The notes under the pieces: model-generated | Told to the model about the DNA's origin: nothing | Databases searched by the model: none | What the model saw: only the letters and a program-made list of their open reading frames with translations | Part shown: piece by piece, positions 5,110 through 14,600 of the stretch | Layout: each line of letters starts with the position of its first letter | Numbering within the stretch: the first letter of the stretch is position 1 | IMG/VR virus record: IMGVR_UViG_3300032397_000028 | Location: 1 to 43,994 of that record | Direction: 5' to 3' (one strand) | Length of the DNA: 43,994 bases | DNA from: a virus | Program-made: the position numbers and the translations under genes

Positions 5110-6260
5110 ACAACCTCCTCAGCACAATACTCTTCACTCCTATGGGCCATGGGGCGTGGGGACTCCCGGTGGTGTTCACCGGGATGCCGGGGAGTGCCAA
5201 GACGCGCAAGCTCGCGCAGCTTGCGGCATCTTGGGGACTGCCCTTTGAAGGTCTTGCCGTGGGAGCACGCGGCGAGGGAGCCTTCGGGGTCGTGCCAGTC
5301 CCTGACGGGGCTGGCAGGGTGACCTATCCACGTCCTGATTGGACAGACCGTTTCGTCAGTCAAGGTCGCGGGCTCATCCTTGTAGACGAGCTCACGACAG
5401 CTGGCGAGCTATTGCAGCACGCACTGATGGCGCTGTTATCAGAGCGTGTCATCGGCTCGCATCAGCTCCCTGGTGGAGTACGCGTCATCGGCGCGTGCAA
5501 CCCTCCCGACGTCGTGCGAGGCTTCACCCTGGCGGCGCCAGTCGCAAACCGGATCGGTCATCTGAAGTGGGAGGCTCCGAGCCTCGACGACTGGTCCGAA
5601 CACATGATGTCTCAGGTGAGCGAAACGACTCTCACATCGAAGGATCCTGCCGCAGAAGAGAGCAGGGTCCTGCTTCAATGGCCGAGCTACTTCGGCCGAA
5701 GCGTCGCATCGGCGACCGCGTTTCTCAGGACCGATCCTGAGATGCGCGAGAGACCATTTCCCGTGGATGACCCACGTGGAAGCGGTCCTTGGCCGTCGTT
5801 GAGAACGTGGGACTATGCCATGAGAGCAGACGCGAGTGCACGTCTGCACGGGCTAGAAGCGGTCGGGCGCGAAGCGCTCGTGGAGAGCTTCATAGGCAAC
5901 CAGGCTGCAGCGTCTTGGTTCACGTGGGCCGAACAGGCGGATCTCCCCGACCCGGCCGACGTGCTCGACGGGAAGGTCAAGTATCAGGTTGAGCCTCATC
6001 GGCTCGACCGAGCGTATGCTGTGCTTCAAGGGTGCACGGCGATGCTAGCAGCACCCGCGACTGAGTCTGCGGCTGAGAAAGCCGCGCGGCTCACGCGTAG
6101 CGCATGCGTGTGGTCGATCCTTTCCGCTGTCGGTGTGACTGCGGCTGACATCGTCGTGCCGTTCGCGGCGCGATTGGTCAAGGCAGGACTTCACAAGTGC
6201 CCCGAGGCACAACCCGTTCTCAAGGTCATCAATCCGGCAGTAACAGCGGGGGTCAAGTGA
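5106..6260 (+). CDS. MoxR-type AAA+ ATPase
   Basis: A 384-residue protein with Walker A GMPGSAKT, Walker B GLILVDE and sensor-1 region VRVIGACNPP, as in MoxR/RavA-type AAA+ chaperone ATPases. These remodel partner proteins, usually with a VWA-domain protein encoded beside them, as here. GTG at 5106 is chosen because GGAGG sits 5 bp upstream and the GTGA overlaps the previous stop. The arrangement ATPase, VWA protein, third gene with 4-bp overlaps suggests one complex. Its target in the phage cycle is unknown. Confidence 0.85.
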   Translation: MNNLLSTILFTPMGHGAWGLPVVFTGMPGSAKTRKLAQLAASWGLPFEGLAVGARGEGAFGVVPVPDGAGRVTYPRPDWTDRFVSQGRGLILVDELTTAGELLQHALMALLSERVIGSHQLPGGVRVIGACNPPDVVRGFTLAAPVANRIGHLKWEAPSLDDWSEHMMSQVSETTLTSKDPAAEESRVLLQWPSYFGRSVASATAFLRTDPEMRERPFPVDDPRGSGPWPSLRTWDYAMRADASARLHGLEAVGREALVESFIGNQAAASWFTWAEQADLPDPADVLDGKVKYQVEPHRLDRAYAVLQGCTAMLAAPATESAAEKAARLTRSACVWSILSAVGVTAADIVVPFAARLVKAGLHKCPEAQPVLKVINPAVTAGVK

Positions 6261-7549
6261 CACCTGCTGAACTATTCGGGGTCGCACGCCACTTGGTAGC
6301 GACCAAGCTCCCGTATATGCGCTCGGCGCTTACGGGATGCGTCGCCATCGAGTCGGCCGAAGTCGATACGATGGCGATGTCCGAGCGTGGGGTTCTGGTC
6401 TGGAACCCCGAATTTGTCAAGGACCTCAAGCCGCAGGAAGCGGCTGGAGTGGTCTACCACGAGCTTCTACATTGGATGCTCGACCATCACGCACGGCTCG
6501 GCGATCGCGACCCCGACATGTGGAATACCGCGGCGGACTTGTCGATCTATCCGGCAGTGACTGCCGTGTTCTCTCTGCCTGCGGATGCGTATCGCCCAGA
6601 GTTGTTCGGGTGGCCCTCAGGCGAGACCGCTGAGGGCTACTACGCTCGGCTGACACAACGACAGCAACAGTCTAGCAAGTCTGGTCCTGGAAAGCCGCAG
6701 CAAGGTCAAGCGCAGTCCGATCCGGGCAAGGGTCAAGGCGATTCTAGTTCGGATCGTAGTGCGGATGACTCCAAGGCTGGAGAGCCCGAGAAGGTTACTC
6801 AGGGCAAGTGCGGTTCCGCAGCTAGCAATCCTTCGAAAGGAGAACCGGACAAGGACTCACCACTCAACCGTACTCCTGCGCAATGCGCGCGCGTGCGTAG
6901 GGCAGTCGCTGAAGCCGCAAAGGCTGCAGCACAGTCGGGCAAAGGCGAACTTCCCGGCGAGCTAGCTCGATGGGCCATGATGACCTTGGCTCCGCCGAAG
7001 GTTCCTTGGCGCACGAAGCTGCAGCACCTCGCACGCCAAGCGGTGACGTTCCGCTCTGGCGCGCAAGTCTATCGGTTCGATGGCCCGAGTCGGCGTCAGG
7101 CTGGACTCGGATACGGAGCAGGGAAAGGCGTGCTTCCGAGAATGCGCGCTCCGAGCCCCAAGATCGTTGTTGCCATCGACACATCAGGCTCGATGGGTGG
7201 TGACGATCTCGTGGCTGCATTGCGTGAGGTACGGGGCATTCTGCAGGCGATGCGATGCCCTCTCGAACTTGTCTCGTGTGATGCTCACGTCAACGCCATC
7301 GGGCGAGTGACTCGCATCGAGGACGTTCCGGCACTACTAAAAGGTGGTGGCGGTACGAACTTCAGGCCAGTGTTCGAGCTCCTGGAGAAGGAGCACCCGC
7401 AGCCTGAGATCGTCATCTACATGACGGATGGCGATGGACGCTACCCGGAGAAGCCCGGATGGACCCATGTCATATGGGTACTGGTCGGAAGCTACGTGAA
7501 ACAGCCCCCATGGGGTGACGTTGTCAGGGTGGAGGAGGACAGCAAATGA
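6257..7549 (+). CDS. metallopeptidase-like and VWA domain protein
   Basis: A 430-residue protein. Residues about 5-110 contain YHELLHWMLDHH, an HExxH zinc motif as in the DUF2201/VWA-like metallopeptidase family. Residues about 135-225 are a low-complexity Gln/Ser/Gly/Lys linker. The C-terminal domain has a VWA MIDAS pattern: DTSGSM, GGTNF and MTDGDG. GTG at 6257 overlaps the stop of the ATPase gene (GTGA). In this family the VWA protein is the substrate adaptor of the MoxR ATPase. The intact HExxH could be catalytic or structural. Confidence 0.85.
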   Translation: MTPAELFGVARHLVATKLPYMRSALTGCVAIESAEVDTMAMSERGVLVWNPEFVKDLKPQEAAGVVYHELLHWMLDHHARLGDRDPDMWNTAADLSIYPAVTAVFSLPADAYRPELFGWPSGETAEGYYARLTQRQQQSSKSGPGKPQQGQAQSDPGKGQGDSSSDRSADDSKAGEPEKVTQGKCGSAASNPSKGEPDKDSPLNRTPAQCARVRRAVAEAAKAAAQSGKGELPGELARWAMMTLAPPKVPWRTKLQHLARQAVTFRSGAQVYRFDGPSRRQAGLGYGAGKGVLPRMRAPSPKIVVAIDTSGSMGGDDLVAALREVRGILQAMRCPLELVSCDAHVNAIGRVTRIEDVPALLKGGGGTNFRPVFELLEKEHPQPEIVIYMTDGDGRYPEKPGWTHVIWVLVGSYVKQPPWGDVVRVEEDSK

Positions 7550-10339: not shown

Positions 10340-10578
10340 AAGGCACGAATGAAGTCATGGTGGATGCAGGCTATCTGCCTGCGGCTATGGTTGCTGCGGC
10401 GATAGGAAAGGCATTGAGTACAGTACATCGCATGGTGCAGTCTGGCAAGCTGCGGTTCGTGCGCGACGGCACGGCACTGTACATCGAGACGCAAAGCCTC
10501 AACGATTACTACAAGGGGAACATCCCGATGTTGGTAGCCATATCGAGGGCCAGAACGGAGCTGACGCGTGTGGCTTGA
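10336..10578 (+). CDS. small helix-turn-helix protein (excisionase-like)
   Basis: An 80-residue protein with a MerR/excisionase-type winged HTH pattern: AAMVAAAIGKALSTVHRMVQSGKLRFVRDGTALYI. It overlaps the ParB-like gene (ATGA) and the helicase gene start. It probably binds DNA as a regulator. No integrase is visible in the window. Confidence 0.75.
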   Translation: MKGTNEVMVDAGYLPAAMVAAAIGKALSTVHRMVQSGKLRFVRDGTALYIETQSLNDYYKGNIPMLVAISRARTELTRVA

Positions 10579-13500
10579 AGTTCACAATATCAAGACCAAG
10601 TTCCTACGCGGAACAAGCGACGAGCATGCTTGGCTTTGCGCGTACTTGGCCTTCCCTGACACGAAGGCGAGGTATCGTCGAGGGTCGTATGCGGGCAAAG
10701 CTGCAGACGATAAGATTCGGCTGTTCAACATTATCACCAGCACATTCCCCACAGGATTTCTGCCGACCGTGCGACGTGCGGCCGAAGCGGAGGGCTACAC
10801 TGTCGAGATCCTAGACCGCCGCGTAGTGCCTGCAGAGCTCGATCCGAATGCAGACCTTGCGTGGCTTCGAGACTATCAACGCGAGGCTGTCGATGCGGTT
10901 GTCGAACGGAAGCGTGGGATCATTTCGGCCCCGACTGGAAGTGGCAAGACCGAAATCGCAGTGGGTCTCACGCGAGCATTGCCGTGTCAGTGGCTCTTCG
11001 TAGTGCATCGAACAACGCTCACACGTCAGGCGCTAGACCGCTATGGGCTACGCACGAAGTTGGAGGCAGGTTTTATCGGTGAGGGCATGTGGGACGTTCC
11101 GGACGATGCAACGTTCGTGTGCGCTACGTTCCAAACATTGCATGCCGGCATGAAGCGCAACGACCCGAAGACGATGCGCCTGCTCACTGAATGGGCGCAA
11201 GGTTTGATCATAGATGAGTGCTTTCCAGCCGGAACGCGTATTGGGAGAATCCCAATAGAACAGATTGCAGTAGGTGACACGGTTCTTTCGTATGACGAGA
11301 CAGCTAACACACCAACAGTTGGCCGAGTAACTAAGACCTTCTGTCGTAGTACATCAAGCATTATTCGACTGCGGTTTGCAGATGGACGCTATCTGGTATG
11401 TACTCCAGGACATCCGATCCTAACTACAGAAGGATGGACTTCTGCGGCTTACACACGCGGGAAGTATGTGCTAAGCATATGTGATGCGCAAACAATTCCT
11501 ATGCGGTCGATGCAATGCAGAGATCTGGATTGTAACAAGCCACAACATCTACGTCGGATATTGCAGGGAATGCAGGGTGCTTCGAAGGAAAGAACGGCGA
11601 AAACGGGTCGAGCGTCCGTGCTCACATTGCGGGAAATTACTAGTATTCGAAGGTCGAAAAGATCTAGGCCGTGCACGCAGTCCAACAACCTTTTGCTCGC
11701 CCGAATGTTACGCAAAGGCACAAAGCGTTATATCTCGACAGGTAGCACTACAGCACAGTGCCGAGGCTTCGCAGCGTATGCGAGAACACAATCCCATGAA
11801 ATCCAAAGAAACCCGTGCAAAGGTTGCCACTACACTTCGCGCAATGCAGTGGAAGCCCAAACAACAAGGAGGGAATGGTCGCCCTCTACCAATACCACAG
11901 ATACTACTTGCCGCAGCGTTAGGCTGGGATACAGAGGTAGCAGTTCCTACAAGGCAACTTCGCGATTCCGGGTATCCCACATGTTACAAAATCGACATTG
12001 CAAATGCCGATCTTCATGTGGGCATAGAAGTAGACGGACCCTCCCACTACTCGCGCAGATCACTAGACCAGAAAAAAGACGAAATGTTGGCCTTGTTAGG
12101 GTGGACAATATTGAGGTTTTCAAACAAGGCTGTGATGACGAATTTGAATGTCTGTGTCCAGGAGGTATTGTCTACAATCTCGAAGTTGAGAGAACGCAAA
12201 CATATATTGCAGAGGGACGAGTAGTCCATAATTGTCATACATTGCCTGCTCAGAGCTTTCTGCAAGTTGCAATGCTTACGCGGTCTGCGTATTACCGTGT
12301 TGGAGTGTCGGGGACACCGCTCGACCGCGACGACAACAGAAGCATTTATGCAGTAGCAACACTTGGCCCTGTCATCTACCGAATCAAAGCAGACACGCTC
12401 ATTGACGCAGGTGTGCTCGCGCGCCCGAGCATTCGCATGGTGCACTGCACTCAGCGCAGCGACAAGCCTACGTGGCAGGGCGTGTACGGCGAGAGTATCG
12501 TGCGGAGTTCAGCACGGAACAATGTCATCGTTGACTGTGCAAAGGTTGCAAAGAAGCCGTGCTTGCTTTTCGTGAAGGAGATCTCGCACGGTAAGCAGCT
12601 TGAGAAGATGTTGCTGAAGGCCGGCATCCGATGCGCGTTCACTTGGGGCAACCACTCCACGGACTACCGCATGAGTCGTGTTCGTGACCTTGTGCGCGGA
12701 GCCATCGACGTGTTGATCTGCTCGGTTGTGTTCCAAGAAGGGCTCGACGTGCCCGAGCTTGAGAGCGTGATTGTGGGCAGTGGCGGTAAATGTTTGGGTC
12801 CAGATGTTCTTGTACTTCGCTATGACGGCCGCATGATACGTGCAGCGGACGTGTGTGTGGGTGATTTTCTTATGGGGCCAGATAGCACACCACGACAGGT
12901 GCTTGCTACAACAACGGGTTTTGGTTGTATGTATCGAATTGTTCCGAGTAAGGGTCAGTCCTGGACATGCAATGCCGCGCATATACTGACACTTGGTCGT
13001 CGGAATTCAGGTCCTGCCGGTGGCACGTATGACACAGTATTTGATATCCCGATTCAAGATTACTTAAGAAGACCGTCCCGACATTACCAACTGTTCACAA
13101 CAGGTGTACAGTTTGCTTCTCAGCCTGAACTTCCATTAGACCCGTATTTTCTCGGTGTTTGGTATGGCGACGGCACTAAAGGCCTCCGTTCTGTAAGTGT
13201 AACAACACCAGATCCAGAGATCGTGCAGATGCTATTGGAGATAGCAAAAACATACAGGCTAAAACTGCGAGCAGACCGGAGCAAAAGCAAAGCTGCCGCG
13301 TATCACATTACCAAAGCACGTCGTGGCGGAAACCCTGCAACCATACGTAATGAATTACTAGAGATTCTACGCACAGTTGTTGGGGACGGGAAACACCTTC
13401 CATTTGCATATCTCACATCAAATTTGTCTGATCGCTTAGCATTTCTTGCAGGGTTAATTGATACCGACGGGTCTGCACATCATCACGGATACGAGATTAC

Positions 13501-14041
13501 ACAAAAGCGAAAAGCATGGTCCGAGGATATCTGCTTTCTTGCACGTTCCCTCGGGTTGCATGCAACAATGTTTGAAAAGGTAGTAAATGGTTCGAGCTAT
13601 TGGCGTGTGTTCATTGTTGGCGATTGCCGGAGATTGCCAATTCGCATTAGTAGAAAGAAACCTGCACCTGAGTGCCCTAAAAAACGAGGTAATTTTATAG
13701 GTTTTCGCATTGAGGAAGAGGGCATAGGGGCCTATGCCGGCTTTACACTTGACGGTGATGGGAGATTTCTACTCGGGGACTTCACTGTCACGCATAACTC
13801 GGTTATCGCAACGTTGCAACGTATTGGACGAGGAATGCGAGTTGCGAAGGACAAGACCACGTTCGAGGTTTTCGATTTTTGGGATCGTGGGTGTTGTCGG
13901 AACAACAAGCTCGGGCAACATACAGGGTGCAAGTGGTTGGAGAAGCACTCGCAACGTAGGGTTCGCGCTTACTTGACCGAAGGGTACCAGACGACTGAGC
14001 TGGCATCGGTAAGCGAGCATGTACGCGATGACGACAGATGA
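10568..14041 (+). CDS. superfamily 2 DNA helicase precursor containing two inteins
   Basis: The 1157-codon ORF encodes a precursor. Three extein pieces (10568-11218, 12233-12790, 13799-14041) would join to about 483 residues, a normal size for a phage SF2 helicase. Motifs: Walker A SAPTGSGKT, motif II IIDECH, motif III GVSGTP, motif V CSVVFQEGLDVPE and motif VI QRIGRGMR. Intein 1 splits the DECH box after Glu; intein 2 lies just before motif VI, so both sit in the most conserved active-site stretches, as inteins usually do. The helicase probably acts in replication, recombination or origin remodelling. Confidence 0.9.
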   Translation: MWLEVHNIKTKFLRGTSDEHAWLCAYLAFPDTKARYRRGSYAGKAADDKIRLFNIITSTFPTGFLPTVRRAAEAEGYTVEILDRRVVPAELDPNADLAWLRDYQREAVDAVVERKRGIISAPTGSGKTEIAVGLTRALPCQWLFVVHRTTLTRQALDRYGLRTKLEAGFIGEGMWDVPDDATFVCATFQTLHAGMKRNDPKTMRLLTEWAQGLIIDECFPAGTRIGRIPIEQIAVGDTVLSYDETANTPTVGRVTKTFCRSTSSIIRLRFADGRYLVCTPGHPILTTEGWTSAAYTRGKYVLSICDAQTIPMRSMQCRDLDCNKPQHLRRILQGMQGASKERTAKTGRASVLTLREITSIRRSKRSRPCTQSNNLLLARMLRKGTKRYISTGSTTAQCRGFAAYARTQSHEIQRNPCKGCHYTSRNAVEAQTTRREWSPSTNTTDTTCRSVRLGYRGSSSYKATSRFRVSHMLQNRHCKCRSSCGHRSRRTLPLLAQITRPEKRRNVGLVRVDNIEVFKQGCDDEFECLCPGGIVYNLEVERTQTYIAEGRVVHNCHTLPAQSFLQVAMLTRSAYYRVGVSGTPLDRDDNRSIYAVATLGPVIYRIKADTLIDAGVLARPSIRMVHCTQRSDKPTWQGVYGESIVRSSARNNVIVDCAKVAKKPCLLFVKEISHGKQLEKMLLKAGIRCAFTWGNHSTDYRMSRVRDLVRGAIDVLICSVVFQEGLDVPELESVIVGSGGKCLGPDVLVLRYDGRMIRAADVCVGDFLMGPDSTPRQVLATTTGFGCMYRIVPSKGQSWTCNAAHILTLGRRNSGPAGGTYDTVFDIPIQDYLRRPSRHYQLFTTGVQFASQPELPLDPYFLGVWYGDGTKGLRSVSVTTPDPEIVQMLLEIAKTYRLKLRADRSKSKAAAYHITKARRGGNPATIRNELLEILRTVVGDGKHLPFAYLTSNLSDRLAFLAGLIDTDGSAHHHGYEITQKRKAWSEDICFLARSLGLHATMFEKVVNGSSYWRVFIVGDCRRLPIRISRKKPAPECPKKRGNFIGFRIEEEGIGAYAGFTLDGDGRFLLGDFTVTHNSVIATLQRIGRGMRVAKDKTTFEVFDFWDRGCCRNNKLGQHTGCKWLEKHSQRRVRAYLTEGYQTTELASVSEHVRDDDR
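11219..12232 (+). mobile_element. intein 1 of the helicase
   Basis: A 338-residue intein from Cys (CFPAGTRIGRI) to Asn (GRVVHN), followed by extein Cys. Block A is CFPAGT, block B is TPGHPILTTEGW with the Thr-x-x-His pattern, and the C-terminal blocks are VYNLEVERTQTYIAEG and VVHN. All splicing residues are present. The middle, about 11500-12095, reads as Arg/Ser/Thr-rich non-domain sequence in this frame because an endonuclease gene occupies another frame. Confidence 0.9.
11484..12224 (+). CDS. Vsr/DUF559-like homing endonuclease overprinted inside intein 1
   Basis: A 246-residue ORF in the +1 frame relative to the helicase (a GTG at 11481 directly precedes this ATG). The N-terminus has two Cys clusters (CGRCNAE...CRECR; CSHCGK...CSPEC), the middle is basic, and residues about 165-230 form a PD-(D/E)xK/Vsr-type core: YKIDIANADLHVGIEVDG, then DEMLALLGWTILRFSN and the usual C-terminal VQEVLSTISKL helix. 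The stop TAG at 12222 lies inside codons of the intein's C-terminal VVHN block. Vsr-like endonucleases next to inteins are known from phage 'fractured' genes with split inteins; complete overprinting on an uninterrupted intein is unusual. Confidence 0.8.
   Translation: MRKQFLCGRCNAEIWIVTSHNIYVGYCRECRVLRRKERRKRVERPCSHCGKLLVFEGRKDLGRARSPTTFCSPECYAKAQSVISRQVALQHSAEASQRMREHNPMKSKETRAKVATTLRAMQWKPKQQGGNGRPLPIPQILLAAALGWDTEVAVPTRQLRDSGYPTCYKIDIANADLHVGIEVDGPSHYSRRSLDQKKDEMLALLGWTILRFSNKAVMTNLNVCVQEVLSTISKLRERKHILQRDE
12791..13798 (+). mobile_element. intein 2 of the helicase with LAGLIDADG endonuclease
   Basis: A 336-residue intein from Cys (CLGPDVLVLRYDG) to His-Asn (GDFTVTHN), followed by extein Ser. 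Block B contains SWTCNAAHILTL. Two LAGLIDADG motifs, YFLGVWYGDGT and LAGLIDTDGS, mark an in-frame homing endonuclease domain. The upstream extein ends SVIVGSGGK and resumes SVIATLQRIGRGMR. Confidence 0.92.
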
Positions 14042-14600
14042 CGCAAAGACCAAGGCACTTAAGTTACTGGCTCTCGCTGTAGGTTCAACTTACGAAGAGG
14101 AGCGGCGCACGGCTGCGCTTGTAGCGTGCAGGCTCATTCACGAGCATGGTCTGCTCAACGATACTCCAGCAGAGCACCAAGAATCACCTGGTGAGGCGTA
14201 CGAGCGGCATCAGCAGGCCGAGCACAAAATGTGGAGGGAGCATTGGGAGCAGTACGGCACACCTCCACACCCAACATCTGGGCCTAAGCCAGGATCGGCT
14301 GAAGCGCGAGCTGATTCTTGGTACAAGTCTTGGTACAAGGAAACCGAAGTTCAATACGAAGCCAGGCGTCGGGCACGAGAGGCACAAGAGCAGTCTATGC
14401 ATGAGGCGCGCCCTGATCCCCCTTGCGAGCCTGAGAGGTACCGAATTCGGTCGAAGTTTGTGAGCATCTGCCGCAACTGTGGGCAGACGATTCGAATCGA
14501 AGACATATGTTGGTGGCGGCAGGGTGCGGGAGTGTGGTGTGCTTCGTGTTACCTTGAAACGCCTTCGGAGGATGATGCTGATGATCCGGCAGCATTCTGA
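14019..14600 (+). CDS. DUF2786-like protein with C-terminal zinc ribbon
   Basis: A 193-residue protein. The N-terminus (AKTKALKLLALAVGSTYEEERRTAALVACRLI) matches the DUF2786 helical pattern. A charged helical middle follows, and the C-terminus has CRNCGQTI...WCASC, a zinc ribbon. It overlaps the helicase gene end. ATG 14028 is an alternative start. The function of DUF2786 proteins is not established. Confidence 0.72.
   Translation: MYAMTTDDAKTKALKLLALAVGSTYEEERRTAALVACRLIHEHGLLNDTPAEHQESPGEAYERHQQAEHKMWREHWEQYGTPPHPTSGPKPGSAEARADSWYKSWYKETEVQYEARRRAREAQEQSMHEARPDPPCEPERYRIRSKFVSICRNCGQTIRIEDICWWRQGAGVWCASCYLETPSEDDADDPAAF

What the first reader, a model, noticed from the sequence alone, without database searches (positions are those of the whole stretch)
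11484..12224. Vsr-like endonuclease gene overprinted on an uninterrupted intein
The endonuclease frame and the intein frame are both open across about 740 bp. At 12099-12224 the DNA encodes both the conserved end of a DUF559/Vsr domain and the intein's C-terminal splicing blocks, and the endonuclease stop lies in the VVHN codons. Vsr-like endonucleases are known beside split phage inteins; here the host frame is not broken.
Basis: partly seen in the sequence, partly recalled or inferred. Interest (0 to 1): 0.85.

Follow-up and report, generated by a model that had tools for sequence, protein, structure and literature searches.

The report
Homing endonuclease overprinted on an intein
In this phage and in more than a hundred related sequences, one stretch of DNA is read in two frames, once as a self-splicing protein insert in a helicase and once as the DNA-cutting enzyme thought to spread that insert, an arrangement that could explain how natural split inteins arise.

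Summary
A 246-aa DUF559/Vsr-like endonuclease ORF (11484-12224) lies in the +1 frame inside an unbroken helicase-intein ORF (10568-14041): 0 host-frame stops against about 13 expected.

It is not one phage's oddity. Of 127 intein-embedded relatives found, 126 are overprinted in the same +1 register over an open host frame (6 seen only in part); 120 of them form 75 families. Free-standing DUF559 genes have about 10 stops per 100 codons in that frame; the overprinted ones have none in 14,478 codons.

Between relatives, changes peak at the host's third codon position in helicase and intein, but at the endonuclease's third position inside the overprint, so both proteins are under selection. Models agree: intein ends fold, the host-frame middle is disordered, the endonuclease resembles I-Bth0305I.

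Corynebacterium phages phi673/phi674 are occupied and empty alleles with a conversion-tract signature. Mini-inteins, free-standing neighbours and split ("fractured") versions exist; every split version keeps the overprint register, so split inteins of this type probably derive from this state.

Expression, splicing and cutting are inferred. Out-of-frame endonucleases without an intein (ShiLan) are known; a 2025 preprint on non-canonical inteins could not be read.

The parts
10568..14041 (+). SF2 DNA helicase ORF (1157 aa) carrying two inteins
   Evidence: ResIII, Helicase_C, phrog_16 DNA helicase
11213..11218 (+). DE codons of helicase motif II (Walker B), directly upstream of intein 1; motif resumes with CH at 12233-12238
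11219..12232 (+). Intein 1 (338 aa, Cys1 ... HisAsn), unbroken in the host frame
11219..11485 (+). Intein 1 N-terminal splicing region (AlphaFold residues 1-89, pLDDT about 97)
11484..12224 (+). Overprinted homing endonuclease ORF, +1 frame, 246 aa + stop (GTG 11481 is an alternative start)
11502..11708 (+). Two zinc-finger-like Cys motifs of the endonuclease (CGRC...CREC; CSHC...CSPEC)
11790..11801 (+). Conserved NPMK motif of the endonuclease, between zinc fingers and nuclease domain
11985..12179 (+). DUF559 nuclease domain (HEN residues 168-232; conserved D171, E182, D184, H188, D195)
11486..12079 (+). Host-frame filler of intein 1: open but unconstrained, predicted disordered
12080..12232 (+). 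Intein 1 C-terminal splicing region (AlphaFold residues 288-338, pLDDT about 97); its first 145 bases also encode the HEN C-terminus
12096..12125 (+). Dual-coded core: HEN LGWTILRFSN / intein RVDNIEVFKQ
12222..12224 (+). HEN stop codon inside the ValVal codons of the intein VVHN motif
12791..13798 (+). Intein 2 of the same helicase, conventional type with an in-frame LAGLIDADG endonuclease (internal contrast)

Best explanation
It is a mobile intein whose homing endonuclease is encoded in the +1 frame of the intein's own DNA. Step 1 (inferred, strong): the helicase mRNA is translated straight through; the polypeptide carries a HINT splicing domain interrupted by about 200 disordered residues, which excises itself and restores the helicase. 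Step 2 (inferred): ribosomes also start internally at an ATG/GTG just after intein block B and make a separate zinc-finger + DUF559/Vsr-like endonuclease. Step 3 (inferred, with natural empty alleles as support): the endonuclease cuts intein-less helicase genes at motif II, and repair copies the element in together with short flanks. Step 4 (states shown by comparison, direction inferred): the host-frame filler only has to avoid stops. When it gains stops the intein becomes a split intein with a free-standing endonuclease; when the endonuclease is lost a mini-intein remains.
For: 126 of 127 intein-embedded relatives are overprinted in the same +1 register (120 with both intein ends and zero host-frame stops; 6 judged from partial loci). 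75 clusters: 0 host-frame stops against 691 expected; free-standing DUF559 controls 360 stops in 3743 codons against 0 in 14,478. Substitutions by host codon position 1/2/3: extein .265/.196/.506, intein N .216/.163/.401, overprint interior .388/.193/.155 (host position 1 = HEN position 3), dual-coded end .166/.097/.124, intein-only end .073/.047/.453. SD of 5 or more bases 51% against 15% background, ATG 88% against 58%. HEN model pLDDT 91, best solved fold I-Bth0305I; intein model folds only at its ends and matches solved inteins. Empty allele phi674: 7 differences in the 78 nt after the site, then 386 identical nt; +1 residue Val replaced by Cys. Mini-inteins and empty alleles in related Vibrio phages. 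No Rfam intron.
Against: No expression, splicing or cleavage data. The window's own HEN start lacks a clear Shine-Dalgarno although other genes of this phage have one, so this particular copy may be weakly expressed. DNA-level relatives of the window are absent from the phage collection, so homing signs come only from more distant relatives. Start choice was optimised per locus; the background was matched only by number of candidates. The HEN tree has many weakly supported branches.
Confidence: 0.86

Rival explanations
1. The endonuclease is made not by internal initiation but by programmed +1 (or -2) ribosomal frameshifting, giving a helicase-N/intein-N/endonuclease fusion.
For: The HEN frame is always +1 to the host; in some loci it is open well upstream of the first start codon. 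The window's HEN lacks a clear SD.
Against: In 42 of 75 families the HEN frame is closed by a stop within 5 codons upstream of the first start codon, in 7 directly at it, leaving little or no room to shift; SD and ATG are enriched.
Confidence: 0.08
2. The endonuclease frame in the window is a decaying relic with no present function; only the intein matters.
For: Weak SD at 11484; homing endonucleases commonly decay after fixation (established knowledge); a decayed copy (L130) and HEN-less mini-inteins exist.
Against: The full-length ORF keeps the conserved nuclease and zinc-finger residues; across 18 pairs of relatives the HEN frame shows purifying selection. No close pair was available for the window's own copy, nearest relative 55% identical.
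Confidence: 0.2
3. It is a fractured gene: a split intein with a free-standing endonuclease, made to look continuous by a sequencing or assembly error.
For: Such split relatives exist (L123, L243-L249, L194).
Against: The window has no host-frame stop across the whole overprint, whereas true split loci have 15-31; over a hundred other loci including isolate phages are continuous.
Confidence: 0.01
4. The insert is an RNA intron with an intron-encoded endonuclease.
For: Endonuclease ORFs unrelated to the host frame are typical of group I introns (established knowledge).
Against: No Rfam match at E<=1; both intein ends show protein-type third-position substitution bias and the HINT fold; the host frame stays open.
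Confidence: 0.01

Closest known systems
[quoted passage not shown] 2025, PMC11855218)
   Same: Homing endonuclease hidden out of frame inside an open host gene, with patchy distribution; no stop in the host frame
   Different: ShiLan has no detectable splicing domains, so the insert is thought to stay in the protein; its nuclease is HNH; the host is a methylase. Here a HINT intein surrounds the overprint and the nuclease is DUF559/Vsr-like, in a helicase (in one split case a terminase)
Fractured genes: split inteins with Vsr-like free-standing endonucleases (Dassa et al. 2009; paper not held, from memory)
   Same: Vsr-like endonuclease gene between intein N and C halves in phage genes
   Different: There the host gene is broken in two; here it is unbroken and the endonuclease shares its DNA. 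Split relatives found here keep the same N/C/HEN register
I-Bth0305I, Vsr-like homing endonuclease (PDB 3r3p)
   Same: Best solved fold for the HEN (Foldseek prob. 1.00, E 0.019)
   Different: Only the catalytic domain matches; the genomic arrangement is different
Canonical mobile intein with in-frame endonuclease (e.g. LAGLIDADG; intein 2 of this same gene)
   Same: HINT splicing domain, endonuclease between the N and C blocks, insertion in a conserved motif
   Different: Here the endonuclease is a separate protein in another frame, not a domain of the intein
Gosselin et al. 2025 preprint on actinobacteriophage inteins with 'non-canonical architecture' (doi 10.1101/2025.01.02.630785)
   Same: Cited in PMC11855218 for overlapping reading frames in actinobacteriophages
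   Different: Not held, content unknown; it may already describe out-of-frame endonucleases in inteins

Membership tests
Class 1 intein (HINT) | Cys1, block B TxxH, C-terminal HisAsn, nucleophile at +1 | tested here: met
   CFPAGT..., CTPGHP, VVHN|C; C1, T62, H65, H337, N338 invariant in 39 aligned sequences
Class 1 intein (HINT) | HINT fold | tested here: met
   AlphaFold ends pLDDT about 97; Foldseek best hits are Mtu RecA and other inteins
Class 1 intein (HINT) | Protein splicing activity | not testable with these tools
   needs expression and mass spectrometry
Vsr-like / DUF559 homing endonuclease (cf. I-Bth0305I) | Nuclease domain sequence and fold with conserved acidic/His residues | tested here: met
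   DUF559 E=5.9e-12; D171, D184, H188, D195 invariant and E182 nearly invariant in 48 sequences; fold hits 3r3p and 3hrl
Vsr-like / DUF559 homing endonuclease (cf. I-Bth0305I) | Mobility: occupied and empty alleles at one site | tested here: met
   phi673/phi674 and Vibrio phages; relatives only, not the window's own phage
Vsr-like / DUF559 homing endonuclease (cf. I-Bth0305I) | Site-specific cleavage of the empty allele | not testable with these tools
   biochemistry needed
Fractured gene / split intein | Host gene broken into two ORFs around the endonuclease gene | tested here: not met
   no host-frame stop in the window or in the other overprinted loci; met only in the split clade and L194
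ShiLan-type out-of-frame element | Endonuclease out of frame in an open host gene | tested here: met
ShiLan-type out-of-frame element | HNH nuclease and no splicing domains | tested here: not met
   DUF559 nuclease, intein splicing domain present
Canonical endonuclease-containing intein | Endonuclease domain in the intein frame | tested here: not met
   HEN is +1 to the host; host-frame middle is disordered and unconstrained
Group I/II intron | Covariance-model match | tested here: not met
   no Rfam hit at E<=1 over 10400-14100

The most novel reading that the evidence does not exclude
A large, anciently fixed class of inteins carries its homing endonuclease as an overprinted +1-frame gene, and this state is an evolutionary source of natural split inteins: because the host-frame middle is a mere stop-free linker over a self-sufficient endonuclease gene, stops there plus a new start for the C half turn a continuous intein into a fractured gene without harming the endonuclease.
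Probability: 0.6. Interest if true: 0.88.

Novelty: new variant of a known kind. Interest (0 to 1): 0.8.

Why it matters
It shows that an intein and its endonuclease need not be one fused protein or two separate genes: they can share the same DNA in two frames, and this has been kept over great sequence divergence. It offers a concrete route from continuous to split inteins, an open question in intein evolution and of practical use, since split inteins are protein-engineering tools. It also means that endonucleases of this kind are hidden in genes annotated only as helicases. The phi673/phi674 pair makes homing and internal initiation directly testable.

Tried and rejected
Chance ORF: rejected by recoding and by relatives. 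Sequencing frameshift: rejected. RNA intron: no Rfam match. Selection for hydrophilic filler: not seen, hydropathy equals recoded expectation, p=0.92. Distance correlations between HEN, intein and extein as a homing test: all similar (0.52-0.55), uninformative. DNA-level search for close relatives of the window in phages: none. Plasmids: none. Literature: ten full-text searches found only the ShiLan work on out-of-frame endonucleases; Gosselin 2025, Gorbalenya 1998 (Non-canonical inteins) and the paper I recalled as Dassa 2009 are not held.

Full report
THE OBSERVATION. The window is a virus record of 43,994 bases. The helicase ORF 10568-14041 has 1157 codons without a stop. It contains two inteins. 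Intein 1 (11219-12232) sits after the DE of helicase motif II and ends VVHN before the CH that completes the motif; intein 2 (12791-13798) is conventional, with an in-frame LAGLIDADG endonuclease. Inside intein 1, in the +1 frame, lies the endonuclease ORF 11484-12224, with a DUF559 domain at E=5.9e-12, zinc-finger-like Cys pairs and an NPM motif. The stop codon lies in the ValVal codons of VVHN. All details of the finding hold.

CHANCE. Recoding the endonuclease with synonymous codons puts on average 11 to 13 stops in the host frame and never fewer than 3 in 4000 draws; the real sequence has none, while the third frame has 16.

RELATIVES. tblastn against phages gave 40 records; in eight representative loci (Corynebacterium phi673, Pseudomonas MR14, Vibrio CP-T1 and others) the endonuclease lies in the +1 frame of a long annotated CDS, and no separate feature is annotated for it. 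Profile-guided scans of viral and genome contigs returned 160 further loci. Of 121 loci where both intein ends were recognised, all 121 have the endonuclease in +1; 120 have no host-frame stop and one is split. Six more partial loci agree: some cut by contig ends, the rest with an intein end not recognised by the profile but the host frame open. The 120 fall into 75 clusters at 60% protein identity: 0 host-frame stops observed, 691 expected from recoding. The comparison set of loci without recognised intein ends, mostly free-standing DUF559 genes, has 360 stops in 3743 codons in that frame. A DNA pattern drawn from the dual-coded end found 66 viral sites; every one is an endonuclease in +1 to an intein: 61 with both ends and an open host frame, 4 at contig ends, 1 split (some contigs are those).

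SELECTION ON BOTH FRAMES. In 18 independent pairs of relatives, substitutions concentrate at the host's third codon position in the extein and the N-terminal intein block. In the overprint interior they concentrate at host position 1, which is the endonuclease's third position. In the dual-coded end all three positions are held down, and past the endonuclease stop the host third position dominates again. So the endonuclease is under purifying selection in its own frame, the intein ends in theirs, and the filler only has to stay open. Its hydropathy equals that of recoded sequence.

STRUCTURE. AlphaFold gives the endonuclease a mean pLDDT of 91; the best solved folds are I-Bth0305I and a DUF559-like protein (modest E-values 0.019 and 0.038, probability 1.00). 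The host-frame intein folds at residues 1-89 and 288-338 (pLDDT about 97) and is of low confidence, read as disordered, between; Foldseek returns known inteins.

EXPRESSION. Candidate endonuclease starts carry Shine-Dalgarno matches of 5 or more bases in 51% of families against 15% in a background, and are ATG in 88% against 58% (the per-locus choice was optimised, the background matched for number of candidates). In several loci the SD is formed by intein codons just after block B, for example GAC GAG GTT (Asp Glu Val). In 42 of 75 families the endonuclease frame is closed within 5 codons upstream of the first start, which argues against frameshifting. The window's own start has no clear SD although several genes of this phage do: this is the main doubt about this copy.

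MOBILITY. phi674 is 99% identical to phi673 over the joined flanks and lacks the intein; helicase CDS 1605 against 2511 nt. phi674 reads DE-VHH, phi673 DE-[intein]-CHH. Seven differences lie in the first 78 nt downstream, then 386 nt are identical, and upstream the first difference is 161 nt away. This looks like co-conversion during homing that also supplied the Cys needed for splicing. Vibrio phages related to 1.088.O show three states at the same site: empty (L175), mini-intein of about 150 aa without endonuclease (L173, L174, L176), and overprinted. Three free-standing endonuclease genes sit directly upstream of an uninterrupted helicase (L051, L067, L102).

SPLIT FORMS. A search centred on the split locus L123 found seven more fractured helicase loci (L243-L249, some near-identical) with 15-30 host-frame stops; a terminase-like gene (L194, same contig as L320; host named from its sequence, not tested by a profile) is split with 31. 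All keep N and C blocks in one register and the endonuclease at +1, and its 3' end still overlaps the C-half ORF. Independent origins would not be expected to share this register. In a quick tree the helicase split clade (support 100) lies among overprinted sequences, but the deeper branches are weak. The reverse change would need some twenty stops to vanish. I therefore infer overprinted to split.

KNOWN AND NEW. Out-of-frame HNH endonucleases without an intein are published (PMC11855218). Vsr-like endonucleases beside split inteins are known (Dassa 2009, from memory). I found no paper on an overprinted endonuclease in a continuous intein, but a 2025 preprint on non-canonical actinobacteriophage inteins is not held, so priority is open. 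I rate it a new variant of a known kind.

LIMITS. All evidence is from sequence and prediction. Homing, splicing and expression are inferred. Loci are not fully independent; clusters were used for the main statistics.

Noticed in passing
12791-13798: Second intein in the same helicase, before the QRIGRG motif, with a conventional in-frame LAGLIDADG endonuclease: two inteins of different design in one gene.
   Followed up: partly
L194 / L320: Fractured terminase-like gene with a split intein and a related endonuclease carrying about six zinc-finger-like motifs: the family seems not to be confined to helicases.
   Followed up: partly
L051, L067, L102: Free-standing relatives of the endonuclease directly upstream of an uninterrupted helicase gene.
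   Followed up: partly
L130:2896-3198: Shortened endonuclease (about 100 aa, middle missing) in an intein whose host frame is still open: possibly a decay intermediate towards a mini-intein.
   Followed up: no
L173, L174, L176: Mini-inteins of about 150 aa without endonuclease at the same helicase site in Vibrio phages.
   Followed up: partly
75 overprinted families, third frame: The frame used by neither protein holds more stops than recoding predicts (1016 against 726); unexplained.
   Followed up: no
L097, L104, L106, L123, L130: Insertion a few codons downstream of the usual DE site (after DEGH, DEAH(H) or DESHT), still with +1 endonuclease.
   Followed up: no
6197-7549: Upstream ORF with a strong match to PHROG 1314, annotated HNH endonuclease (450 aa, E=3.5e-60).
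   Followed up: no
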